In this document: piece after piece, positions 646-36,556 of the stretch | Layout: every line of letters begins with the position of its first letter | Numbering within the stretch: position 1 is the first letter of the stretch | Assembly: GCF_002797675.1 (NCBI RefSeq) | Contig: NZ_PGEX01000001.1 | Location: 372,001 to 436,000, forward strand | DNA length: 64,000 nt | Source: Hallerella succinigenes | GTDB taxonomy: Bacteria > Fibrobacterota > Fibrobacteria > Fibrobacterales > Fibrobacteraceae | Direction: 5' to 3' | Position numbers and translations under genes: made by a program | The notes under the pieces: generated by a model | The model's database searches: none | The model's input: the letters and a program-made list of their open reading frames with translations, nothing else | Told to the model about the DNA's origin: nothing

Positions 646-1647
646 CTAGTCCTTTACACAACGAACGGAATGCCCGTAGTACTTACTGTTGTAGTACAGG
701 TACGCGCGGTCGTAGTAGTAGTACAAGAGCATGCCGTACGCGTAGTAACTACTGCTCTCCGTAGAACTCCAGAAGTACGCGTAGCGGCCCTCGTCGATGA
801 AATCCCCACTGAGGAACCTGTAGCCGGCAGGCAACGCCGAGAAACCGAAAGAGTCCTCATTGGTGATTCCGTCATATGCCGTCCAACCCGTCTGCGACTT
901 GAGCTTGGCACCGGCTGTGGATTTACCGCCCACTGCCGTGAACAGCGTATTCCATTCATCGTAGCTTGGCAAGTGCCAACCCTCGGGGCAAACTATTTTT
1001 GCTGCCGCCCAGGTGTAAAGGCGACCGTATTTTTCGCAATTTGCAGCGACATTGCCGTAACACCAGCTATTTTCCTTGAGACTCGGGGTCTTCACGCTGT
1101 CTGCATAATTCAGGTTCTCTGCCATCCACACTTGTTCGCCGATTTTCACCGTCTTGTATGTGTTGCCGTCGCGGGAGTCGGTCATGGTGCCGTAGATAAT
1201 ACCCATCTCACTGCTAGAACTTTGCTCATTTTCGCTAGAGCTCGAATTCACATCAGCAGAACTGCTGGATTGCGTCGCTTCGCTCGAACTGGATTGCGGC
1301 GCCTCGCTCGAACTGGATTGTGGCGCCTCGCTTGAACTGGATTGCGTTGCCTCGCTCGAACTGGATTGCGGCGCCTCGCTCGAACTGGATTGTGGCGCCT
1401 CGCTTGAACTGGATTGCGGCGTTTCACTCGAAGAAGAACTTTCCATGACACTCGAAGAAGAACTCTCTATGGCACTAGAAGACAAGCCGTCATTACGAAT
1501 CGTCGAAGAGGACGAAGGAATCTCCACGGCACTCGAGGAAGACAGTTCCTCAATTTCCGTATCCTTGGCAGAAGCACTGTCACTATCGCAGGCGACAAGC
1601 ATCGCAGACAGGGCGAATGCACCAACAAACAGTTTCGTGAAATTCAT
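646..1647 (-). CDS. FISUMP-domain lipoprotein, tandem copy 1, with serine-rich repeat linker
   Basis: A 333-residue lipoprotein. The signal ends in LVAC with Cys20 as the lipidation site, so the protein should be anchored in an envelope membrane. Residues about 35-155 are a serine-rich linker built from a 24-bp tandem repeat (units like QSSSSEAP). The C-terminal 175 residues are the Fibrobacter succinogenes major paralogous domain: DSRDGNTYKTVKIGEQVWMA, then CPEGWHLPSYDEW, FWSSTE and a final SVRCVKD, which suggests a C-type-lectin-like fold. The start is the ATG at 1647, preceded by GGAGG; an in-frame ATG at 1659 overlaps that ribosome site and is less likely. The C-terminal 49 codons before the constant tail are hypervariable against copies 2 and 3 (see the variable-region entries). 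The ligand is unknown. Confidence 0.9.
   Translation of the reverse strand: MNFTKLFVGAFALSAMLVACDSDSASAKDTEIEELSSSSAVEIPSSSSTIRNDGLSSSAIESSSSSVMESSSSSETPQSSSSEAPQSSSSEAPQSSSSEATQSSSSEAPQSSSSEAPQSSSSEATQSSSSADVNSSSSENEQSSSSEMGIIYGTMTDSRDGNTYKTVKIGEQVWMAENLNYADSVKTPSLKENSWCYGNVAANCEKYGRLYTWAAAKIVCPEGWHLPSYDEWNTLFTAVGGKSTAGAKLKSQTGWTAYDGITNEDSFGFSALPAGYRFLSGDFIDEGRYAYFWSSTESSSYYAYGMLLYYYYDRAYLYYNSKYYGHSVRCVKD
670..816 (-). other. Hypervariable region of FISUMP copy 1 (candidate DGR variable repeat)
   Basis: This 147-bp segment (49 codons) aligns without gaps to 1782-1928 and 2670-2816. It is bounded upstream by constant GCCGGCTACAGG and downstream by constant TCCGTTCGTTGTGTA. Variable codons are nearly all NNC: at the first codon the three copies read TTC, AAC and TAC; at the eighth GAC, GGC and CTC; at the thirtieth CTC, TAC and ACC. 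Between them lie fixed blocks such as TTC TGG AGT TCT ACG GAG. This is what reverse transcription of an AAC-rich template with random copying of adenines would give. It is a pattern call; no template repeat was found in the window. Confidence 0.7.
1265..1432 (-). repeat. Seven 24-bp tandem repeats encoding the serine-rich linker
   Basis: The octamer CTGGATTG recurs exactly every 24 bp at 1265, 1289, 1313, 1337, 1361, 1385 and 1409. Each unit encodes an eight-residue block of the type EAPQSSSS. The units also form a 72-bp higher-order period (EAP, EAP, EAT twice), which suggests expansion in blocks of three. Copies 2 and 3 of the gene family lack this expansion, so linker length varies between paralogues, probably by slippage or unequal crossing-over. 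Confidence 0.9.
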
Positions 1648-1757
1648 GAAACCCTCCATTAAATCTATTTACCGCATAAATTTAATAAACAAAAAAACGG
1701 CAGGCGAAGCACTGGCCAGAAAAAGAGGAAATCTAAAAGGATACAACCCTGGAATTG

Positions 1758-2627
1758 CTAGTCCTTTACACAACGAACGGAAAGCCCGTAGTACTTACTG
1801 TAGTACTCCAGGTACGCGTAGTCGCTGCCGTAGTACAAGTACATGTAGTACGCGTAGTTACTACCGTACTCCGTAGAACTCCAGAAGTACGCGTAGTTGC
1901 CCTCGCCGTAGTAATTCCCAATGCTGTTCCTGTAGCCGGCAGGCAACGCCGAGAAACCGAAAGAGTCCTCATTGGTGATTCCGTCATATGCCGTCCAACC
2001 CGTCTGCGATTTGAGCTTGGCACCGGCTGTGGATATACCGCCCACTGCCGTGAACAGCGTATTCCATTCATCGTAGCTTGGCAAGTGCCAACCCTCGGGG
2101 CAAACTGTTTTTGCTGCCGCCCAGGTGTAAAGCCGGCCGTATTTTTCGCAGTATCCAGCGACACCGTCGTAACACCAGCTCTTTCCCTTGAGACTTGCGG
2201 TCGTTACACTGTCGGCATAGTTCAGGTTTTCGGCCATCCAGGTCTGGGTGCCGATGACCACCGTCTTGTAGGTCTGGCCGTCGCGTAAATCTGTCAGCGT
2301 TTTTGCGGTTGCGTCGTAAACACTGCCAGCGCTTATGTTTTCAGAAGAACTGCTGGATTTCGTCGTTTCACTCGAAGAGGAGGAATTGTCATTGCGAATC
2401 GTCGAAGACGATGAAGCAATCTCAATGGCACTCGAAGAGGAACTCTCTATGGCACTGGAAGACAAGCTGTCATTACAAATCGTCGAAGAGGACGAAGCAA
2501 TCTCCACGGCACTCGAGGAAGACAGTTCCTCAATTTCCGTATCCTTGGCAGAGGCACTGTCACTATCGCAGGCGACAAGCATCGCAGACAGGGCGAATGC
2601 ACCAACAAACAGTTTCGTGAGTTTCAT
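1758..2627 (-). CDS. FISUMP-domain lipoprotein, tandem copy 2
   Basis: A 289-residue lipoprotein, with lipobox LVAC at Cys20 and a signal and first linker almost identical to copy 1. The serine-rich linker spans about residues 36-100. The FISUMP domain follows, with CPEGWHLPSYDEW, FWSSTE and C-terminal SVRCVKD. The ATG at 2627 has an AGAGGG ribosome site. The gene ends 110 bp before the start of copy 1 and begins 19 bp after the stop of copy 3, so the three are probably a tandem-duplication cluster and may be co-transcribed. The final 49 codons before the constant tail differ strongly from copies 1 and 3 while the flanks hardly differ. A surface-exposed binding role is inferred; no ligand can be named. 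Confidence 0.9.
   Translation of the reverse strand: MKLTKLFVGAFALSAMLVACDSDSASAKDTEIEELSSSSAVEIASSSSTICNDSLSSSAIESSSSSAIEIASSSSTIRNDNSSSSSETTKSSSSSENISAGSVYDATAKTLTDLRDGQTYKTVVIGTQTWMAENLNYADSVTTASLKGKSWCYDGVAGYCEKYGRLYTWAAAKTVCPEGWHLPSYDEWNTLFTAVGGISTAGAKLKSQTGWTAYDGITNEDSFGFSALPAGYRNSIGNYYGEGNYAYFWSSTEYGSNYAYYMYLYYGSDYAYLEYYSKYYGLSVRCVKD
1782..1928 (-). other. Hypervariable region of FISUMP copy 2 (candidate DGR variable repeat)
   Basis: Same boundaries and same 147-bp length as the regions in copies 1 and 3. Besides NNC codons, single adenine-compatible changes are seen: codon 22 is GGT here and AGT in the others, codon 5 is AAT against GAT, and codon 49 is CTT against CAT. The one column that breaks the rule is codon 41, which reads TAC, GAG and GAC in copies 1, 2 and 3, so a third-position G replaces C here. 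Confidence 0.7.
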
Positions 2628-2645
2628 GGAACCCTCTTATTTTCC

Positions 2646-3539
2646 CTAGTCCTTTACACAACGAACGGAATGCCCGTAGTTCTTACTGTAGTAGTCCAGG
2701 GGCGCGTCGTGGTAGTCGTAGTACAAGGTCATGTAGTACGCGCCGCTACTACTGCCCTCCGTAGAACTCCAGAAGAGCGCGTTGTAGCCCTCGAGGCTGT
2801 AATCCCCACTGTAGTACCTGTAGCCGGCAGGCAACGCCGAGAAACCGAAAGAGTCCTCATTGGTGATTCCGCCATATGCAGCCCAACCAGTCTGCGATTT
2901 GAGCTTGGCACCGGCTGTGGATTTACCGCCCACTGCCGTGAAGAGAGTGTTCCATTCATCGTAACTTGGCAAGTGCCAACCCTCGGGGCAAACACCCTGG
3001 ACTTTGCCAGAAAGACCGCAAATCTTGCCGTAGCCGCAGTCTAGCGGATTGTCCGCATCGGTTGCAAGTTTCACCGAGTCCATCGCCGCCGCCCAGGTGT
3101 ACAGGCGACCGTACTTGGAGCAGTTGGAGGGATCGTCATCATAACAGTAGCTGTTCTCCGTCTCGTAATTCAGGTTTTCGGCCATCCAAGTCTGCTCGCC
3201 GATGACCACCGTCTTGTAGGTCTGGCCGTCGCGCAAATCTTTCAGCGTTTTTGCGGTTGCATCGTAAACACTGCCAGCGCTTATGTTTTCAGAAGAACTG
3301 CTGGATTGCGTCGTTTCACTCGAAGAAGAACTTTCCATGACACTCGAAGAAGAACTCTCTATGGCACTGGAAGACAAGCTGTCATTACGAATCGTCGAAG
3401 ACGATGAAGCAATCTCCACGGCACTCGAAGAAGACAGTTCCTCAATTTCCGTATCCTTGGCAGAGGCACTGTCACTATCGCAGGCGACAAGCATCGCCGT
3501 CAAGGCAAAAGCACCGAGAGAAAACTTGGCGAAATTCAT
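2646..3539 (-). CDS. FISUMP-domain lipoprotein, tandem copy 3
   Basis: A 297-residue lipoprotein. The start is the ATG at 3539 behind GGAGG (an upstream in-frame ATG at 3569 has no such site). The signal ends LVAC at Cys20. A serine-rich linker of about 60 residues follows, then the FISUMP domain. Unlike copies 1 and 2 it carries an insertion of about 30 residues (around AMDSVKLATDADNPLDCGYG) before CPEGWHLP, as also seen in the distant FISUMP gene at 30059. So the array mixes two versions of the domain core but shares signal, linker start and C-terminal framework. It is first in the tandem cluster and lies downstream of the transketolase terminator, so it should have its own promoter. Confidence 0.9.
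   Translation of the reverse strand: MNFAKFSLGAFALTAMLVACDSDSASAKDTEIEELSSSSAVEIASSSSTIRNDSLSSSAIESSSSSVMESSSSSETTQSSSSSENISAGSVYDATAKTLKDLRDGQTYKTVVIGEQTWMAENLNYETENSYCYDDDPSNCSKYGRLYTWAAAMDSVKLATDADNPLDCGYGKICGLSGKVQGVCPEGWHLPSYDEWNTLFTAVGGKSTAGAKLKSQTGWAAYGGITNEDSFGFSALPAGYRYYSGDYSLEGYNALFWSSTEGSSSGAYYMTLYYDYHDAPLDYYSKNYGHSVRCVKD
2670..2816 (-). other. Hypervariable region of FISUMP copy 3 (candidate DGR variable repeat)
   Basis: 147 bp, gap-free against copies 1 and 2. Examples where this copy differs: codon 14 CTC against TAC, codon 25 GGC against TAC, codon 39 CCC against TAC, codon 46 AAC against TAC. Fixed codons GCG, ATG, TTG, CTG, AGT AAG and GGG are interleaved exactly as in the other copies. 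No stop codon can arise from NNC codons, a known design feature of DGR variable repeats. Confidence 0.7.
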
Positions 3540-3575
3540 TAAAACCTCCAAAATAAACCTTATTGGCATGAATGT

Positions 3576-5952: not shown

Positions 5953-7635
5953 ATGAAAACCTTCACCTTGAAAGCAGCCACCGCGGGCGCCGCTCTTCTG
6001 GGCATTATCGCCTGCGGAGACGACAGCAGCTCCAGCAGCAAAACGGATATCTTCAGCACGAAGGACAACCTGCCCGAGTGCACCGAGAAAATCGCCGGAG
6101 ACACGCTCTACGTGGAAAGCGATTCCGCGGACTACTTTTGCGAAGACGGCGAATGGGTAATCGTCGCCGATACGACGGGAACGGACACCTCCGCAACGGA
6201 CTCGTCGGACGTTTCCTCTTCGTCGGGAAAGAACCCGAGCAGCTCCTCGGCGGACAGCAGCGCAGCAGACACCCTTTTGAGTTCCTCGGCGTCGGATTCC
6301 CTTTCGAGCAGCTCCAGCACCGAGGCGAGCAGCAGTTCGGAAGCGGCTTCCAGCAGTTCTGCGCTCCCCATTGAAATGCTAAAAACCTGCTCCGACAGCA
6401 TCACGACAATCTCCCTTTACGCTATCGGGGACAGCCTTGTTTTAAACGTACCCTGGCAACTCAAATGGTCGGCTTATACAAATGCGGACAAGCGTCTGGC
6501 AAGCTATTCGGAATGCTTGGTATCGGCGTCCCGCGTAATGGATTCCGCATACGTTTGCAAAAATGAATGGATACAATGCACCGCCTATCAATACGGTTTC
6601 CATGTCGATGCCAAATGCGACTCGAGCCTTGCTCTTTCGCCTTGGGGAATTTATGAATACAAGGGATTGAAAACCGACTTGAGCGTCGCCTATATGTCCG
6701 GTCTAATGGATTCCCAGCTATGCACATATAGCAATTCCATTGTATACGGCTGCCTTGCCGATAATCTCACCCGGGCCGAACTCACTTTTGTCAACGGGAA
6801 AAAGTGGTATTTTGACATCAAGTCTACCAAGTGGTACAGCGATTCGGATTCTTTGACCGCCTTCAACAACGCCGTTTTGGCAATCTCAACGGCAATCGAC
6901 AACGACGATTTTACCAAAGTGCAGTCGCTGACTGGGCTCAAGGCTTCCGATCCTTACATGGAATTTTTCAAGAAAGGCGGAAAGGTAACTTCTTCTAGCA
7001 ACGGCGATGCGCGTTTTTCCATCGAAGGTTTCGAGAATCGTTCTTTCATTGAACCGCTCATCCAGTCCGATTGCGAAGACATCAACAAACACTGGCTGTC
7101 AAAAATTCCTCTCACCCTCACCCCGGCGGTCAGCAGCTCGAGCGCCAAATCTTCGAGCAGCAGCGCGCAGTCCTCGTCCTCCGTTTCCAGCTCCAGCGTC
7201 GCTTCGAGCAGCTCCGCAGTGTCCAGCTCTTCAACGGAATCCTCCAGCTCTTCCGCAGTGTCCAGCTCTTCGGCGGAATCCTCCAGCAGCGAGTCTTCAA
7301 GCTCTTCCGCGCCGACTGTTTTCAACGACGAGAACCTGGACTTTTTGGCGGGACTCGCCTCCTTCACGAAAGACGAGGGGGCATCCAGCGCGGACACCGC
7401 GGTATGGGCGGCGCAACAAAGTTTCTTGTCATCCCAAGGGACAAAGTTGACGACCTTCACCAATTCCTTGTCGTCGGGATTGAGCGATGCGGGCTATGCA
7501 TCGGTATCCGAAAGCGCCGCCACCCAAACGTATGGATTGCAGAAAGGCGGCTCGACGTATCTTGTGATTATCGAGAAGTCGGTTGATACGAAACAAATAA
7601 CCATCAACATTACCGCCAAGAAAATCGAAGGCTAG
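5953..7635 (+). CDS. Serine-rich lipoprotein of unknown function
   Basis: A 560-residue lipoprotein with signal MKTFTLKAATAGAALLGIIAC (Cys21 lipidated) followed by a serine stretch. A first linker (about residues 75-140) and a second one (about 395-455), both rich in SSSS with A, E and V, separate three parts: a short N-terminal domain with paired cysteines (NLPECTEKI, YFCEDGEW), a central domain of about 250 residues with further cysteines, and a C-terminal domain of about 110 residues. No family is recognised in the central or C-terminal domain. The linker style matches the FISUMP lipoproteins, but the FISUMP core motifs are absent. GGAGAG precedes the ATG. The layout suggests an exported, multidomain envelope protein; its role is unknown. 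Confidence 0.85.
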   Translation: MKTFTLKAATAGAALLGIIACGDDSSSSSKTDIFSTKDNLPECTEKIAGDTLYVESDSADYFCEDGEWVIVADTTGTDTSATDSSDVSSSSGKNPSSSSADSSAADTLLSSSASDSLSSSSSTEASSSSEAASSSSALPIEMLKTCSDSITTISLYAIGDSLVLNVPWQLKWSAYTNADKRLASYSECLVSASRVMDSAYVCKNEWIQCTAYQYGFHVDAKCDSSLALSPWGIYEYKGLKTDLSVAYMSGLMDSQLCTYSNSIVYGCLADNLTRAELTFVNGKKWYFDIKSTKWYSDSDSLTAFNNAVLAISTAIDNDDFTKVQSLTGLKASDPYMEFFKKGGKVTSSSNGDARFSIEGFENRSFIEPLIQSDCEDINKHWLSKIPLTLTPAVSSSSAKSSSSSAQSSSSVSSSSVASSSSAVSSSSTESSSSSAVSSSSAESSSSESSSSSAPTVFNDENLDFLAGLASFTKDEGASSADTAVWAAQQSFLSSQGTKLTTFTNSLSSGLSDAGYASVSESAATQTYGLQKGGSTYLVIIEKSVDTKQITINITAKKIEG

Positions 7636-7663
7636 TCCGAAAGGGAATTCCTTCAAACATTTC

Positions 7664-7690
7664 AAGGCTGCCTGCGGGCAGCCTTTTTTG
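7664..7690 (+). terminator. Intrinsic terminator after the serine-rich lipoprotein gene
   Basis: AAGGCTGCC pairs with GGCAGCCTT across a 4-nt loop and is followed by a run of six T. It begins 29 bp after the stop codon at 7635. Confidence 0.9.
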
Positions 7691-29919: not shown

Positions 29920-30054
29920 AGCCGACCGCCCAAAAAACGGGGCGGCCTTGCCTACGGCTAGGCAGGCTCGGATATACAAACAAATGAACTTGTCGAAGCA
30001 TGGTTGCTGTCCTTCGACAAGCTCAGGGACCGTTTGTCGAACTCGTCGAAGCAC
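29920..30054. repeat. Inverted-repeat cluster, left flank of the collagen-like FISUMP gene
   Basis: GACCGCCC and GGGGCGG face each other around 29924-29945. GCCTTGCCTA and TAGGCAGGC pair around CGG just after. CTTGTCGAAG at 29989 pairs perfectly with CTTCGACAAG at 30012, followed by GCTCAGGGAC and a degenerate second copy (TTTGTCGAACTCGTCGAAGC). The same CTTCGACAAGCTCAGGGA word recurs at about 31817-31835 on the other side of the gene. These look like dispersed REP-type palindromes. Confidence 0.7.
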
Positions 30055-30058
30055 TGCC

Positions 30059-31663
30059 TCAGTCCGAGTCCCTGAGGCAACGTACGGAATACCCGAAGTC
30101 CTTGAAGTCGTCGTAGTAATTCAAGAGCACGGACTCGTTGCCGTAGTGGAAGTACCAGCGGTACGCATTGCCACTGCTGCGCTCCGTAGAACTCCAGATG
30201 TTGGCGCTCTCGCCGGCGTAGTAGTAATTGCCAGGGCCAAGGAGGCCCGCCGGCAACACGGAAAAGCCGGATTCGTCCGTGCCGTTCCCGGTCTTTCCTC
30301 CATGATCATCATAGTCCCAACCGCTGGTGGACTTGAGCTTTGTTCCTGCGACATCCTCTCCACCGACGGCCTCGAAAAGCACACTCCATTCCTCTTTACT
30401 TGGCAAGTGCCAACCTTCGGGGCAGACGCCGCGGACCGGTTCCGTCGCGTTGCACTCTACATCGTAACCGCAGCCCTTGCCGCCGTCGCTGAACACCCCG
30501 GCACTATCCATGGCAGCACTCCACAGGTAGAGCCGCCCGTACTTGGCGCAGGAATCCGGCTTGTCGTTGTAGCAGTAACTTTTAGCGGTTCCTTCATTGT
30601 AATCATAGTTCAAGTTCTCCGCCATCCAGGTCTGGGTTCCAACAGTCACGGTCTTGTAAACCTGGCCGTCGCGGGAATCCGTGAACATTCCATAGGAAAT
30701 CGCAGGATTCAGATATTGCCAATTCGCCTTTTCTTCAATCCACTTCTGTTCCCAGCACTGGTAGGAAGTCCCGTTCACCGTAATTTTCTCGCCGTCCAGC
30801 GAATCCGAACACACCAAAACGATTTGGTTGTCTAGGCACATTTGCGTCGCGGGATCGTAAGATTCCGTTCCGCATAACTCGTAGATGGAATCGGCAGCGC
30901 AGAATTGCGTTGCTAGGTCGTAAGATTTGGAGTCGCACAAGTCGTAGGTAGCACCATCGATGCAGAACTTTTTCGCCGGATCGTAGGCTGCCGCTCCGCA
31001 CATGGCCTTATACAGAGTCGTCGTCGAGGCGTTCTCCCCTTCGCCGCAGGTCACTTCCACAACGCCATCGCCCTGGTCGGCGATTTCGCAGCCCGAGCCA
31101 TTTTCACCGGCTTCCCCCTTCTCCCCATTTTTCAATACGCCAATGGTATCGCCGCCGCATATAACATTAAATCCTGAATTGTCTTCTAACGCTACGGCGG
31201 TGCAACTTGCGCCATCCAAGCCCTTTTCGCCTTGCTCGCCTTTTTCACCCTGAATTCCCTGCTCGCCCTGTTCGCCTTTTTCGCCCTGTTCGCCGTTCAG
31301 CAATACGCCGATGGAGTCGCCACCGCAAAGTATCTTGTAACCGTTGTCGATGGCTTCCGCAATGCAGCCTTTTCCATCCGAACCCACTTCGCCGTCCGTT
31401 CCATCCTTGCCGGCTTCGCCCTGCTCGCCCTTGAGCGTCGTCCATTTTCCGTCGGCGCAGTAATAAACCTGCGCGGAATCCTCGGCAAATACGATTTCGC
31501 CCACGTTCTCCTCGCCACAGGCGGGCAGCGAATCCCCCGCTGCGACAACGTCAATGCCGGAAGTCTCCGTGACATTCGTTACATTTGTCGTATTTTCATC
31601 GCCGCAAGCAACGATCAAAGCCATGAATGCGACCGTCAAAACAACTGGAAGTGACTTTTTCAT
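30059..31663 (-). CDS. FISUMP-domain lipoprotein with collagen-like repeats
   Basis: A 534-residue lipoprotein with signal MKKSLPVVLTVAFMALIVAC (Cys20). Three blocks of collagen-like Gly-X-Y triplets follow: GEQGEAGKDGTDGEVGSDG near residue 79, GEQGEKGEQGEQGIQGEKG near 123, and GEKGEAGENGSG near 183. Between and after them are small cysteine-containing repeats (YDPAKKFCIDGATYDLC and two relatives). The C-terminal 200 residues are a FISUMP domain (TDSRDGQVYKTVTVGTQTWM, CPEGWHLPSKEEW, IWSSTE, SVRCLRD). Collagen-like stalks with a lectin-like head suggest a trimeric surface display protein. The gene is flanked by repeat clusters on both sides, which hints at local mobility. Confidence 0.88.
   Translation of the reverse strand: MKKSLPVVLTVAFMALIVACGDENTTNVTNVTETSGIDVVAAGDSLPACGEENVGEIVFAEDSAQVYYCADGKWTTLKGEQGEAGKDGTDGEVGSDGKGCIAEAIDNGYKILCGGDSIGVLLNGEQGEKGEQGEQGIQGEKGEQGEKGLDGASCTAVALEDNSGFNVICGGDTIGVLKNGEKGEAGENGSGCEIADQGDGVVEVTCGEGENASTTTLYKAMCGAAAYDPAKKFCIDGATYDLCDSKSYDLATQFCAADSIYELCGTESYDPATQMCLDNQIVLVCSDSLDGEKITVNGTSYQCWEQKWIEEKANWQYLNPAISYGMFTDSRDGQVYKTVTVGTQTWMAENLNYDYNEGTAKSYCYNDKPDSCAKYGRLYLWSAAMDSAGVFSDGGKGCGYDVECNATEPVRGVCPEGWHLPSKEEWSVLFEAVGGEDVAGTKLKSTSGWDYDDHGGKTGNGTDESGFSVLPAGLLGPGNYYYAGESANIWSSTERSSGNAYRWYFHYGNESVLLNYYDDFKDFGYSVRCLRDSD
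30089..30229 (-). other. NNC-rich C-terminal segment of the collagen-like FISUMP gene (possible DGR variable repeat)
   Basis: The last 47 codons before TCC GTA CGT TGC are dominated by NNC codons (TAC, GGC, CGC, CAC, TTC, GAC) around the same fixed frame TGG AGT TCT ACG GAG, NNC, AGY AGT, and GCG TAC as in the 646-3539 cluster. The 15-nt core TGGAGTTCTACGGAG is identical although the rest of the gene is quite different. With only one copy of this type present, variation itself cannot be shown here. Confidence 0.5.
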
Positions 31664-31774: not shown

Positions 31775-31940
31775 CCGAGCTATGGCTCGTGCGCCTGTCG
31801 AAGCATGGTTGGTGCCCTTCGACAAGCTCAGGGAGCGCCGGTCATTGAGCTTGTCGAAATGACCACACCAAACCGCTCTCTTCGATGAGCACAGGGAGCG
31901 GTTATCAAAGCACGGTTGCTGAGCCTGTCGAAGCAAACCG
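31775..31940. repeat. REP-like palindrome cluster, right flank of the collagen-like FISUMP gene
   Basis: CGAGC-TATG-GCTCG, then CCTGTCGAAGCATGGTTG, CTTCGACAAGCTCAGGGAGC, TTGAGCTTGTCGAAATGAC, a degenerate CTCTTCGATGAGCACAGGGAGC and a final GCCTGTCGAAGCA. The arms alternate in orientation and can pair. The words match the cluster at 29989-30054, so the FISUMP gene between them is bracketed by the same repeat family. Confidence 0.7.
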
Positions 31941-32267: not shown

Positions 32268-32900
32268 TTATGCGCCTTCCACGACGGCGATTTCTTCGGA
32301 GGAAAGGCCGTAGAGGGCATAGACCTGCGCATTGATTTGCGCATTCAAAATGGCGATGCGCTGCTGGAGCGTTTTCTTGTCGGCGTCGGACTTGGCAGAA
32401 GCAAGCTGCGTGTGCGCGGCAAGCATTTGGTCTGCAAGGGCGGCGAGAGTTTGCTGCTGTTCGGGCGTGGCGGTGGGAAGAGGAAAATTCTCCAAATATT
32501 TGGTCTTAAAACGGAAATATCCTCCACGAAGAGAAGTTCCTGTTTCTTTCAAGTAAAACCAAATAATAGGCGAGTTCAAAATAGCCAAATATGTTTTGTA
32601 CAAATTAGAATCTGGATTTTTCAAAACAAACGCATATGAAGTGTCGTTATGATAATGTTCTCCGGAATCGAGATACATTGTTGCACCATAGCATACATCA
32701 GGCGTTAAGATTCTTTCCACTGAAAGATTATCGATATTTCGGAAATTCCACAGCGAATACCAAGATGGGTATTTCATACTGGCGGTTCCTCGACTAGCCA
32801 ATCTTTTTCTTAAAGACGAAAAATATCCGTAACAATATGGAAATTGATTTTTCAATTCTTGTTCTTCATAGAGAACGGTTTTTCCATTATCCTTTTTATA
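32268..32900 (-). pseudogene. 3' fragment of a type IIG restriction-modification gene, cut off by the IS630-like element
   Basis: The frame continues from the IS edge as YKKDNGKTVLYEEQELKN and encodes about 210 residues of the target-recognition region of an Eco57I/TaqI-like enzyme: LASRGTASMKYPSWYSLWNF, RILTPDVCYGA and NSPIIWFYLKETGTSLRGGY, then a helical tail. The N-terminal part lies at 34019-36556. Deleting the IS plus one TA joins IYPY directly to KKDNGK in frame. A TTG at 32855 is the only candidate start in the fragment and has no good ribosome site, so this piece is probably not expressed usefully. Confidence 0.85.
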
Positions 32901-34034
32901 ATATTGCTCCGGCGGATATATTTTTTACATAGTCATGCTGCATAAGAGACATGCTTGTCGCCAAAATACTTGATTACTCGTTCAGGGCTGTTGCTCACCA
33001 TTTTCATGTGGGATTCCGCATGGGAGCGTAGCTTTTCGCGAGTCCGAGCCGGTGCGTTGGAAGATATTTCGTGTTTCAGGTCGGCATTAAGACGTTCGTC
33101 AGGATTCAGCTCGGGACTGTAGCTGGGCAGGTAGAATACGCTTATCTTGTCCGTGTTCGCTTCAAGCCATTCCTTTACCGGCTTGCTGTGGTGAACCCTC
33201 AGGTTGTCCATCACGAGAAACACTTTCTTCCCTTTCCCGTCTGCATACACATCCTTCACCAGAGCCGTCATGAAGTCGATGAGCTTCGTCGCGTCGAACG
33301 CCCCGTCAATCATCATCCAGTGGCACTTCCCGCGATTGTTCACCGCCGATATCATGGAAAAGCGCTCCCTGCATCCGGGAGCCTTCACGACCGGGGTCTG
33401 CCCGCAGGGGGCGTAGCTGCGGCCACGGACATCCGTGTTCACGATGGCGGTCTCGTCCGCCCAGTGGATTTCCGCATTCTCGCATACCGCATCGGCCTTT
33501 ATTTTCGGGTATTCCTCTTCGAGCCACTTCTTCACCGCTTCGGGGTTTTGCTCGTACGCGCGGACAATCGGTTTTTGCGGGGTGAAGTTCCATCTTTTGA
33601 GGTAGTCGCCGACCGTTCTCTTGGCCAGCTTCACTCCAAATTTGCTGCGGACAAGCTCCGCAACCGCTTCGCGGGTCCAGAGGGCGAACTTGAACTTGAG
33701 CTGTTCGGGACGCTTGTCCCGGATTAGTTTCTGTATCTCGGATTCTTGATTGGCGGAAAGGAGCCTTTTTTCCCTTTCCTTGCGGCCCCTTGTCTTCGGC
33801 TTGAGCGCATTCATCCCGCCTTTCTCGTAAAGCGATAGAACTGCATCCACCATGGGGCGGCTCACGCCGCAGGTCTCTGCGATCTTGCTTTTCTTGAATC
33901 CCGCCTTCTTCATTTTTACGATTGTCTTCCGTTTTTCGAGAAGGCTCTGGACATTCTTTCTTGCATCATCTTTTTCCATGATGCAAATATAGTAAACTTT
34001 GCTTGTTTTGTAAAGTATTTATCTGCCTAATCTA
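32901..34034 (-). mobile_element. IS630-family insertion sequence, about 1.13 kb, inserted at TA
   Basis: The element holds a single transposase gene and is flanked by TA dinucleotides (TATA on both sides, so the exact cut can shift by 2 bp). Near the ends imperfect inverted repeats are seen: GGCAGATAAATACTTTACA on one side and GGCGGATATATTTTTTACA on the other, 5-10 bp inside the boundary. TA target duplication and one DDE transposase frame are typical of IS630. It interrupts the RM gene in the middle of a Tyr codon. Confidence 0.85.
32933..33979 (-). CDS. IS630-family transposase
   Basis: A 348-residue transposase. The N-terminal part is a winged or homeodomain-like helix-turn-helix (KKSKIAETCGVSRPMVDAVL) followed by a second helical region. 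The DDE nuclease is complete: Asp in IHWADETAI (about residue 170), Asp in FLVMDNLRVHHS (about 260) and Glu in SPELNPDERLN (about 297). No frameshift or early stop is seen, so the element could still be active, in line with a recent insertion into the RM gene. Confidence 0.93.
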   Translation of the reverse strand: MEKDDARKNVQSLLEKRKTIVKMKKAGFKKSKIAETCGVSRPMVDAVLSLYEKGGMNALKPKTRGRKEREKRLLSANQESEIQKLIRDKRPEQLKFKFALWTREAVAELVRSKFGVKLAKRTVGDYLKRWNFTPQKPIVRAYEQNPEAVKKWLEEEYPKIKADAVCENAEIHWADETAIVNTDVRGRSYAPCGQTPVVKAPGCRERFSMISAVNNRGKCHWMMIDGAFDATKLIDFMTALVKDVYADGKGKKVFLVMDNLRVHHSKPVKEWLEANTDKISVFYLPSYSPELNPDERLNADLKHEISSNAPARTREKLRSHAESHMKMVSNSPERVIKYFGDKHVSYAA

Positions 34035-36556
34035 TAAGGATAAATCATGTATTCTTTTTTATCGTTAAAAGAATATCTCTGAATGGTTTTGCCTGTCAAT
34101 ACAGGTTTGCAAATTCCTTTTTCTATTTGGACGTCTTGATCTAGAGCCTCTGAATAACCTGTAATAAATTTTTTGGTTTCTGTACAGTTTTCTAAATAAA
34201 ATGCTTTGTTATCGCCGGTGACAATGCCTTGATAAATCCCTTTAAATACCTCTTTCACTGTATTTTTTTGTTGATGTAATTTTTCAAGAACTGTTGCAGC
34301 CATTCCTGTTTGAAAACTCCATCGGCTTGTATCGCTTAATTTTTCTATGGGGAACGTTTCCGACACAACGCCGTTTTCAATTTCAGTGGGTATCACTTGC
34401 GCATAAGAAAAATTTTTGTTCTGATGGGAAAGTCCGATGACGCAGGTATAAACCGATGCCGAAGAAAAGACTTGCTCCGAGCCAAAATGCGTTAAAAAAT
34501 TCAGCGCACGATTTTTGTATATGAAAGAGCGTAATCCCACGCCAAAGTCGCTGTTCAAGAATTTATGCGGACAAATAAAAGAGAGATAGCCGTCTTTGTT
34601 CAACAAGGTGAATCCTTTTTCCAGGAATAGAACATAAAAATCGAACCGTCCTGTTGCAGACTGGTAATTCTGTTCATAAAACTTCGCTTCTTCTTCATAA
34701 TTTTCGCGCAGACCTTGCACACGCAAATACGGCGGGTTGCCGATGACGCAGTCAAATCCGCCAGTCCGCGTTTTTTTCGGGGCGTTGCGGGGTGTCCCCG
34801 CAGAGGGGGTAGCGAAAGACGCTTTGGCTTTCGCGAGGGGGAGGCTTCCCCCGTCCGTAAATACTTGGGGAAATTCCTTTTCCCAGTCGAAGGCGTTCAC
34901 CTTTCTTTGCTCTTCCATGCAAAAGTCCAGAAAGTTTTTGTCGGCGTAGAAGTCGCTTCCGATGAGCGAGTTGCCACACTTGATGTTTTCCCGCATGTCG
35001 GGGAGGATTTTGTTTTGCGCAAGATCCGAAGAGCGGAACATTTCGCCCATGCCGCTTTGGGAGAGGGCCTTGCCTTCGTTTTCGAGCAGCTTGAGGAAGA
35101 GCGAGAGTTTGGTGACTTCCACCGCCTGCGCGTCGATGTCCACGCCGTAGATGTTGTTCAAAAGGATGCGTTTTTTTTCTTCGACGGAAAGTTTGTAAGA
35201 AAGGGTTGCGGAGTCTTTGTAAATGATTCCCGATTTTTCGGCCCTGGCGCGGTTTTTGTCGCTGTCGTAGTAGTCAAGGTGGTAGGCAAGAAGATACTGG
35301 TATGCGCCGATGAGAAAGCTCCCCGAGCCGCAAGCGGGGTCCACGAAACGCATTTTCGCAATCTGCTCGGGAGTGCGTCCGGCGATTTTTTTGCCGATGG
35401 TGTTTTCCACGATGTAATTCACGATGTAAGTGGGGGTGTAATACACGCCGCCGGCTTTTTGCACTTCGGGCTTTTCAACGACTTCCACGCTGTGTCCGTT
35501 TTTCGTCTTTCGGCTGAAGCGGATGATTTTGCCGAGGAAGCGTTCGTAAATCGAGCCCAGGATTTCCACGGGAAGGACGCTGAACTCGTATGGGCATTTG
35601 GGGTAGTAAAGTTCGCCGACGATGCTTTCGAGGGTTTTGTCCTGAATGGAAAGGCTGTCGGTAAAGTCGTCCTTGGCGAAAAGGCCGGAGTTGAATTTTT
35701 TGTCCGACGCGTCGAAGAGTTTTTGGAGGCGGGGGTAAATGCCGTTTTTGCTCCGGGCGATTTTTCCTAGAGCGTCGTATTCTTCGATTTCCTTGTCTTC
35801 GCAGATGCGCAAGAAGAGGATGCGGTCGATGATTTTCTGGACGCTGGAGGTGAGATTGTATTCGTCGATTTCGGCGTTGTGGAGCGCGATGTCTTCGGCT
35901 AGGAGAAGTCGCCAACGTTCTATCATGGAAAGGATGTCGTCGTCCACGCTGGCCGTCCCCTTTTTGTCTTTCGCGCTTTCAAAATAAGTGTCGAACTTGC
36001 CCAGATCCACAGCTTCGTAGCTGAAGCGGTTGTAAAGCTCTTCAAATTTTTCGGCGTATTCTTCGAAGGTGTAATATCCGATGCGCGCCGTGCCGGCGGT
36101 GTCCTTGGAGTTGGGCTTGATGCGCGTGTCGTAAACGGCGAATTCCGAGAAGTCCGTGAGGATGGCGATGGGCATTTTGGAGGTATAGGCGTAGCGGCGC
36201 ACTTGCAAGGCGGGGGCTGGGTCCTTTTTCAGGTCCACGCTGGGCTGCTTGGCTTCCACGTAGATTTTTTTGATGCCCCCGAAACAGAGGGAATAGTCCG
36301 GGTGTTTGGTGCGGTTGTCGATGGTCACGCGGTCTTCGGGGATGACTTCCCGCTTGTCCGGGCGGGCACCCTTTTCGTTTTTCACGTCCCAGCCGAGGCA
36401 CTCCAAAAGAACATCGATGAATTGTCCACGGCAGTTGGCTTCGTTAAATTCTTTAGAAAGATAATAGGTTTTGTTCTCGTTGAAGAGCCGGGCTAATTCT
36501 GCAACGCGCGCTTTGCGCTCTTCCAAGGTCATCGTTTTGCATTTTGGCTGCGACAT
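34019..36556 (-). pseudogene. 5' part of a type IIG restriction-modification gene (Eco57I-like), interrupted by IS630
   Basis: The first 841 of 845 residues belong to the original enzyme; the last four (RLGR) and the stop come from the IS. An N-terminal nuclease-like domain shows PDYSLCFGG and VEAKQPS, fitting a PD-(D/E)xK site. The adenine methyltransferase has FVDPACGSGSFLIG (motif I) and CVIGNPPYLRV (motif IV). A recognition domain starts around IYQGIVTGDNKAFY and continues in the fragment at 32268. The intact protein would have been about 1,050 residues. The start ATG at 36556 follows GGAG. Without most of its recognition domain the product is probably inactive. Confidence 0.9.

What the first reader, a model, noticed from the sequence alone, without database searches (positions are those of the whole stretch)
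30074..31663. Lipoprotein with collagen-like stalk and FISUMP head
Gly-X-Y triplets in three blocks, a lipid anchor at the N-terminus and a lectin-like head at the C-terminus make a plausible trimeric stalked binder on the cell surface. If the head is hypervariable, this is an anchored, stalked, diversified receptor. The combination of collagen-like repeats with a FISUMP head is at least unusual.
Basis: partly seen in the sequence, partly recalled or inferred. Interest (0 to 1): 0.5.

Follow-up and report, generated by a model that had tools for sequence, protein, structure and literature searches.

The report
Collagen-stalked receptor with retroelement-diversified head
A gut bacterium related to Fibrobacter carries a surface-type lipoprotein with a short collagen-like stalk and a lectin-like head whose tip bears the pattern left by sequence-scrambling retroelements, and relatives of the gene sit beside such retroelements, which suggests that part of this large and poorly understood protein family is a set of diversified receptors.

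Summary
The gene is on the minus strand (30059-31663, 534 aa): lipobox, three Gly-X-Y blocks (7, 10, 4 triplets), Cys-rich repeats, FISUMP head. The architecture is common in the family: 95 of 111 genomes have a collagen match; 13 of 14 complete collagen-selected ORFs end in FISUMP. The head model's best structural match is the Legionella Lcl C-terminal domain (Z 8.4).

Relatives carry diversity-generating retroelements (DGRs): 21 of 32 reverse-transcriptase loci examined hold template/variable pairs with adenine-directed mismatches; in 18 of 21 the variable repeat lies in a FISUMP domain, four times in lipoproteins with Gly-X-Y runs. In a same-genus species one template fits six FISUMP genes. 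Our gene's 3' end is this genome's best match to that template: changed at 25/56 template adenines but 11/135 other sites; 13 of 14 changed AAY codons keep their third base. No reverse transcriptase, accessory protein or free template was found here, so the head looks frozen. Trimer, surface exposure and ligand are untested.

The parts
30059..31663 (-). ORF, 534 aa lipoprotein with collagen-like stalk and FISUMP head (P0001)
31604..31663 (-). signal peptide and lipobox, residues 1-20 (IVAC, Cys20)
   Evidence: sequence; lipobox pattern recalled
31430..31603 (-). N-terminal linker and small two-Cys module, residues 21-78, similar in relatives (CGD..T..., C...DS..YYCADGKW)
31367..31429 (-). Gly-X-Y block 1, residues 79-99, 7 triplets
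31295..31366 (-). two-Cys module (CIAEAIDNGYKILCGGDSIGVLLN), residues 100-123, similar to residues 154-179
   Evidence: sequence; strands predicted only at low confidence
31205..31294 (-). Gly-X-Y block 2, residues 124-153, 10 triplets
31127..31204 (-). second two-Cys module, residues 154-179
   Evidence: sequence
31091..31126 (-). Gly-X-Y block 3, residues 180-191, 4 triplets
30815..31051 (-). Cys-rich Galaxin-like repeats, residues 205-283
   Evidence: E 1.7e-4, below the family cut-off
30071..30649 (-). FISUMP (PF09603 / TIGR02145) head, residues 339-531
   Evidence: model
30066..30271 (-). VR-like 3' segment, best match in this genome to the DGR template of same-genus genome G005; mismatches concentrated at template adenines
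646..1659 (-). tandem FISUMP lipoprotein with poly-Ser linker; last 62 codons differ from its two neighbours by nonsynonymous changes only
1758..2627 (-). second tandem FISUMP lipoprotein of the same cluster
2646..3569 (-). third tandem FISUMP lipoprotein of the same cluster

Best explanation
The gene encodes a secreted lipoprotein that holds a lectin-like FISUMP head away from the membrane on an interrupted collagen-like, Cys-rich stalk and works as a receptor or adhesin. Its head belongs to a class written by DGRs: in relatives a reverse transcriptase copies an adenine-rich template and overwrites the last roughly 60 codons of FISUMP heads, randomising AAY codons in the last strands of the lectin-like fold. 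In this genome the retroelement appears lost, or acted elsewhere before the gene was acquired, leaving a frozen variant among some 44 FISUMP ORFs on different stalks. Shown: anatomy, recurrence in the family, adenine-directed template/variable pairs in relatives, template-like pattern in this gene. Inferred: surface exposure, trimer, ligand binding, the copying mechanism itself (known from other DGRs), and that the variable face is the binding face.
For: Anatomy. Recurrence: 95 of 111 genomes with a collagen match; Pfam FISUMP in 22 of 39 collagen-type ORFs; 13 of 14 complete ones among those drawn by collagen alone, two of them near-identical. DGRs: (24 pairs in 21 of 32 RT loci, dominant mismatch base always A or T, that is adenine on the strand of the target ORF, never C or G; 18 of 21 loci with the VR in FISUMP); RT motif IGNLTSQ and YVDD in all five loci checked; accessory ORF in G005, G021, G087, G076. 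Stalked VPs: L192 and L195, Pfam Collagen over the cut-off; L193 and L211 below it. One template, several targets in G005: six FISUMP ORFs, 26-33 of 58 adenines changed, 2-11 of 136-137 other sites. This gene: template's best hit, 78%, E 3.1e-44; 26/58 vs 13/144, p 3.4e-8; 13 of 14 changed AAY codons keep base 3; upstream control has 27/24/66 changes at codon positions 1/2/3. Window cluster 646-3569: 61 nonsynonymous, 0 synonymous in 186 codon comparisons. Fold.
Against: No RT, no accessory protein, no free template in this genome, which is one contig. The gene has 11-13 non-adenine mismatches and a one-codon and a two-codon indel against the G005 template, more than the cassette's own VR (2), and level with the most deviant of G005's other VRs (11). 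Its closest VR is a G005 gene (29 mismatches), nearer than the template (36), so part of the pattern is shared descent or another template. 14 of 23 rows of collagen-type proteins show no such bias (p about 0.1 or more) with the best of 21 templates. The full-length model is uninformative (pLDDT 39.7). No strain series was available.
Confidence: 0.66

Rival explanations
1. The head is a fixed binder of plant polymer, such as a cellulose adhesin or the suggested cohesin analogue, and paralogue differences at the tip come from ordinary divergence under positive selection and gene conversion, not from a retroelement.
For: FISUMP was reported as a putative cellulose-binding protein and possible cohesin analogue with 17-119 copies in the Fibrobacteres genomes examined, one excepted; one FISUMP protein was seen in the cell envelope only on cellulose. 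No RT in this genome.
Against: Changes fall at template adenines with the third codon base kept, and RT-linked template/variable pairs hit the same segment in relatives. A plant-polymer ligand is not excluded by a DGR.
Confidence: 0.17
2. The Gly-X-Y blocks do not form a triple helix: they are flexible hydrophilic spacers, interchangeable with the poly-Ser linkers of paralogues, and the protein is monomeric.
For: Blocks of 7, 10 and 4 triplets without proline at X or Y; 20 of 44 FISUMP ORFs of the genome have runs of four or more Ser; a collagen match is missing from 4 of 6 genomes of the genus.
Against: Relatives have unbroken runs of up to 67 triplets (L071); K(Y)-G-D/E(X) pairs, recalled as triple-helix-stabilising, number 218 against 123 +/- 6 in within-run shuffles (periodic repeats may account for part). 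The best structural match, Lcl-CTD, is a trimer in crystal and solution (PMC11162425).
Confidence: 0.33
3. It is a Lcl-type adhesin whose fixed head and stalk bind sulphated or other acidic glycans.
For: Same order of parts as Lcl and best fold match (Z 8.4, rmsd 2.5 over 102 residues, 21% identity).
Against: Lcl_C profile match is below its cut-off (18.1 of 34.9 bits); Lcl has an N-terminal helix instead of a lipid anchor and a CTD over 97% conserved between strains, unlike a DGR-type head.
Confidence: 0.1

Closest known systems
Legionella pneumophila Lcl (collagen-like adhesin, PDB 8q4e; PMC11162425)
   Same: Collagen-like stalk followed by a C-terminal C-type-lectin-like head of the DUF1566 kind; 8q4e is the top structural match of the head model
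   Different: Lcl is held by an N-terminal helix, not a lipid; 8 to 19 regular 15-residue repeats by strain; head conserved between strains; head family Lcl_C, not FISUMP. The homologue list in the section read names no Fibrobacter genus (its supplementary data were not read)
DGR variable proteins with Fib_succ_major or DUF1566 heads (PMC4159848; Bacteroides phages PMC8143477)
   Same: VR in a C-terminal FISUMP-type domain; one example is a predicted lipoprotein; Fib_succ_major is cited as a common DGR target domain
   Different: No collagen stalk in the passages read; 9 Fib_succ_major cases in PMC4159848, the example joined to an Mfa2 domain; phages or human microbiome, not Fibrobacter
Treponema denticola TvpA-type DGR lipoproteins (PMC4891356)
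   Same: Lipoprotein targets, remote targets, and isolates that keep target genes while lacking RT and template, which is the state proposed here
   Different: No collagen-like stalk or FISUMP head described in what was read (abstract and passages)
FISUMP / TIGR02145 paralogues of Fibrobacter
   Same: Same head domain, inferred extracytoplasmic, many copies
   Different: Read in print as possible cohesin analogue or cellulose binder; in this genome other linkers, 20 of 44 ORFs with poly-Ser runs

Membership tests
FISUMP (PF09603 / TIGR02145) | profile match over the curated cut-off | tested here: met
   107.9 bits against 33.9; 194.2 against 41.65
Bacterial collagen-like proteins | Gly-X-Y run with Collagen profile match over the cut-off | tested here: met
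   30.8 bits against 27.2; runs of 7, 10, 4
Bacterial collagen-like proteins | triple helix / trimer | not testable with these tools
   only monomer prediction offered; full-length model pLDDT 39.7
Lcl family | Lcl_C (DUF1566) head over its cut-off | tested here: not met
   18.1 bits against 34.9, E 0.0033
Lcl family | Lcl-CTD fold | tested here: inconclusive
   Z 8.4 to 8q4e, top of 997 chains aligned, but the lead over other lectin-like folds is small and the aligner warns about Z near 8; Foldseek has no match at E <= 0.001
Lcl family | N-terminal surface-binding helix without lipid anchor | tested here: not met
   lipobox with Cys20
DGR variable protein | 3' VR that differs from a template mainly at template adenines | tested here: met
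   with the template of same-genus genome G005, not one of its own: 25/56 against 11/135; p 3.4e-8 (best of 5 templates)
DGR variable protein | DGR reverse transcriptase in the same genome | tested here: not met
   RVT_1: none in G000, found in 36 of 111 family genomes in the same run; G005 RT: no match at E <= 10
DGR variable protein | template repeat in the same genome | tested here: not met
   the ten hits of the G005 template at E < 0.01 all lie in FISUMP matches; no adenine-directed pair in 27 own FISUMP loci
DGR variable protein | C-type-lectin fold around the VR | tested here: inconclusive
   5vf4 (TaqVP) Z 6.9; model pLDDT 75.7, pTM 0.78
Bacterial lipoprotein | signal peptide with lipobox | tested here: met
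   MKKSLPVVLTVAFMALIVAC, judged by eye and pattern
Bacterial lipoprotein | exposure on the outer surface | not testable with these tools
   acidic residue at +2 to +4 in 24 of 26 lipobox FISUMP ORFs of this genome is only a hint

The most novel reading that the evidence does not exclude
Fibrobacter-type bacteria hold a repertoire of lipid-anchored receptors, some on collagen stalks and some on poly-Ser stalks, whose lectin-like FISUMP heads are rewritten in trans by one or a few DGRs per genome, so that the lineage's namesake paralogous family is in good part a retroelement-edited recognition system, and lineages such as this one keep a frozen set after losing the retroelement.
Probability: 0.5. 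Interest if true: 0.78.

Novelty: new variant of a known kind. Interest (0 to 1): 0.62.

Why it matters
The role of the FISUMP domain, present in tens of copies per Fibrobacter genome and guessed to be a cohesin analogue or cellulose binder, has been open. That FISUMP heads can be DGR targets is in print for phages and human microbiomes. Finding adenine-rich templates aimed at FISUMP heads across Fibrobacter relatives points to recognition of changing targets (phage, host, neighbours or plant glycans) and makes the question testable: compare head tips within a species, delete the reverse transcriptase, screen head variants for ligands. The collagen stalk on DGR-type heads is a combination that my paper searches did not turn up (open-licence PMC papers, listings and passages only), and it is a natural format for extended, perhaps trimeric, display of diversified lectin-like binders.

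Tried and rejected
Plus-strand reading: several stops. PDB by sequence with the head alone or its profile: no match. Foldseek against PDB: nothing at E <= 0.001. Full-length structure: pLDDT 39.7, not used beyond a hint of strands between the collagen blocks. DGR in this genome: rejected after RVT_1, G005 RT, accessory ORF and template searches; one search carries no control of its own, but one search found the G005 RT and nothing in G000 in one run. The truncated FISUMP ORF at L141:1177-1527 was considered as a template and rejected by reading it: a 117-aa remnant of a FISUMP gene whose tip is not AAY-rich. Adenine bias in every collagen-FISUMP protein: rejected; of 23 rows, 5 have p < 1e-4 (L014 = this gene, L067, L071, L052, L016) and 14 have p of about 0.1 or more, L068 among them having no FISUMP head. 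The second FISUMP cluster (L128) is messier: 148 nonsynonymous and 12 synonymous in the last 62 codons, 38 third-position changes, with gaps. Viral contigs: 2 of 57 FISUMP loci have a pair. I fetched 32 of the 49 RT places listed; 11 of the 32 gave no pair, and their RTs were not classified. In one search, four further G005 FISUMP ORFs do not follow the G005 template, and two fetched G005 loci (L236, L240) gave no row. The best-of-several choice of template (5; 6; 21) lowers p values; for this gene the G005 template was also the best hit in an independent search. The FISUMP profile used was built from nine of these proteins, L053 included; Pfam gave the same number, 22 of 39. The K-G-D/E excess left out one near-duplicate locus (L061) and may come partly from repeat periodicity. 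L024 was mis-picked in the script (a 19-aa ORF) and is not used.

Full report
Check of the observation. The ORF lies on the minus strand at 30059-31663 and gives 534 aa. It has a signal peptide ending in IVAC, Gly-X-Y blocks of 7, 10 and 4 triplets at residues 79-99, 124-153 and 180-191, and a C-terminal FISUMP domain at 339-531 (E 9.9e-31). Pfam Collagen reaches 30.8 bits (cut-off 27.2). In 2000 shuffles of residues 70-209 no run exceeded 8 and no total exceeded 14 triplets, against 10 and 21 observed. Between the blocks sit two similar two-Cys modules (C...CGGD.IGVL.NG), and a Cys-rich Galaxin-like stretch (205-283, below cut-off) precedes the head.

Setting. The genome is one contig of 3.13 Mb. 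The closest named matches are Fibrobacter MAGs, so the family is inferred to be Fibrobacteraceae. It holds 47 FISUMP matches; my scan of 27 fetched stretches gives 44 ORFs, fragments included, 26 with a lipobox by a simple pattern and 20 with runs of four or more Ser; only this one has Gly-X-Y runs over 4 triplets. Collagen matches occur in 95 of 111 family genomes, but in only 2 of 6 of the genus. Of the 30 loci returned for the best collagen matches (a small, top-scoring part of all matches), 14 ORFs are complete at the 3' end in the fetched stretch, and 13 of these end in FISUMP (L068 does not; L060 and L061 are near-identical); the other 16 run off the stretch. Pfam finds FISUMP in 22 of 39 collagen-type ORFs, a set that includes this gene and relatives picked for similarity to it. 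So the architecture is ordinary for the family.

Head fold. A model of residues 322-534 from 10 sequences has pLDDT 75.7 and pTM 0.78. Among 997 chains aligned the top match is the Legionella Lcl C-terminal domain 8q4e (Z 8.4, rmsd 2.5 A, 102 residues, 21% identity), followed by Bdellovibrio Bd2740 (Z 7.7), C-type lectins (about 6-7), a formylglycine-generating enzyme (7.0) and the DGR variable protein TaqVP (6.9). Foldseek itself has no match at E <= 0.001. The fold assignment is therefore good but not decisive; it agrees with a published HHsearch link of DUF1566 and Fib_succ_major (PMC4159848, passages). Lcl is a trimer with a lollipop shape (PMC11162425: outline, Discussion part 1, section 10 and passages).

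Hypervariability. Three tandem FISUMP lipoproteins in this window (646-3569) differ in their last 62 codons by 61 nonsynonymous and 0 synonymous changes in 186 codon comparisons (codon positions 1/2/3: 49/40/2), but just upstream by 17 and 12 in 174 (8/13/22). That is the mark expected of DGR writing at AAY codons. RVT_1 is found in 36 of 111 family genomes and not in this one. I fetched 32 of the 49 RT places listed there and looked for repeat pairs of at least 70 bases with at least 8 mismatches, 80% or more at one base of one copy: 24 pairs in 21 loci, dominated by A or T (adenine on the strand of the target ORF), none by C or G; 11 loci gave none. In 18 of the 21 loci the VR lies in a FISUMP domain; in L209 and L215 it does not by my profile, and in L198 no ORF covered it at the contig end. 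Examples: L192, 11 of 11 mismatches at template A; L193, 15 of 15; L195, 12 of 12; L191, 14 of 14 and 11 of 12.

Stalked and diversified. L192 (900 aa) and L195 (955 aa) have a lipobox, Gly-X-Y runs of 17 and 21+4, Pfam Collagen over the cut-off, a C-terminal FISUMP head and a VR in it; L193 and L211 (1023 aa each) have runs of 10 and 8 and Collagen below the cut-off. The five cassettes checked hold an RT with IGNLTSQ and YVDD. The accessory ORF of the G005 cassette has relatives in G021, G087 and G076 but not in G000-G004. Pfam gives that ORF no name; calling it Avd-like is recall.

One template, many heads. In G005, same genus, the template fits VRs of six FISUMP ORFs on four contigs (L191 twice, L233, L234, L235 twice), with 26-33 of 58 adenines and 2-11 of 136-137 other sites changed; four other G005 FISUMP ORFs in the same listing do not follow it (non-A mismatch 46/132, 54/136, or a different best template). 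The template differs from the six VRs by 29-44 bases, the VRs from one another by 38-53.

This gene. Searching this genome with the G005 template, the best hit is this gene's 3' end, 30066-30271 (78%, E 3.1e-44); the next by E-value is 70% identical. Mismatches: 26 of 58 template adenines, 13 of 144 other sites, Fisher p 3.4e-8 (25/56 and 11/135). Of 19 aligned AAY codons 14 changed and 13 of these kept the third base; in the upstream control region changes by codon position are 27/24/66, with 38 synonymous and 39 nonsynonymous in 146 codons. The changed residues are L475, Y481, Y482, S486, R495, G498, Y504, H506, S511, L513, Y517, D518, D522 and F523. Against a direct copy: one codon missing, two extra, and a G005 VR is nearer (29 mismatches) than the template (36). 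With no RT, accessory ORF or free template here, the head is best read as a remnant target. The same state is described in Treponema denticola isolates that lack RT and template yet keep targets (PMC4891356, abstract and passages).

How it most likely works. Exported by Sec and lipidated (inferred), the protein stands on an interrupted collagen-like and Cys-rich stalk, perhaps trimerised by the head as in Lcl, and binds something outside through the last strands of the head. The stalk seems interchangeable with poly-Ser linkers; the head tip was set by a retroelement. The ligand is unknown; plant polymer, phage, host or neighbour glycans are all open.

Literature limits. Searches of open-licence PMC papers for DGR with Fibrobacter, DGR with collagen, Fibrobacter with collagen-like, and FISUMP or its model names (only the top 20 listed) showed no title or abstract start that reports this combination. 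Passages read: PMC4159848, PMC8143477 and PMC8934634 name Fib_succ_major as a DGR target domain; PMC8144416 has Fibrobacteres only within the FCB group and no 'collagen' or 'Fib_succ' in the main text; PMC4704652 and PMC4619616; PMC11080232, PMC7495880 and PMC5745447; in PMC7517822, PMC7159879 and PMC8195603 'collagen' occurs only in references. Supplementary tables were not read, so such cases may be listed there.

Noticed in passing
window 32268-36556, minus strand: A restriction-modification gene with an Eco57I-type methylase part and a TaqI_C specificity part seems to be split by an IS630-type transposase gene at 32933-33979 (the IS630 label is recalled).
   Followed up: no
L055, L062, L069, L070, L075: Other collagen-type lipoproteins of the family seem to end in a histidine-phosphatase-like domain (ATFILRHAAR or similar) instead of FISUMP; one of 39 members matched His_Phos_1.
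   Followed up: no
L053, L060, L083-L086 and others: A recurring module KSAYE...EEWLASLKG or similar sits after collagen blocks in relatives but not in this gene.
   Followed up: no
L192 and L195: The same template sequence and a similar collagen-stalked target occur in two species (G021, G087), as if the cassette moved recently.
   Followed up: no
L254 (IMGVR_UViG_2728369487_000001) 6301-6494 and 7495-7688: A viral contig carries a FISUMP variable repeat and template, 13 of 14 mismatches at adenine.
   Followed up: no
window 29980-30080 and 31790-31930: Copies of a repeat around CTTCGACAAGCTCAGGGA flank the gene on both sides.
   Followed up: no
G000 FISUMP lipoproteins: An acidic residue occurs at +2 to +4 after the lipid Cys in 24 of 26, perhaps a surface-export signal as known from Bacteroidetes (recalled).
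   Followed up: partly
L209 and L215: Two adenine-directed template/variable pairs hit ORFs without a FISUMP match by my profile; heads not identified.
   Followed up: no
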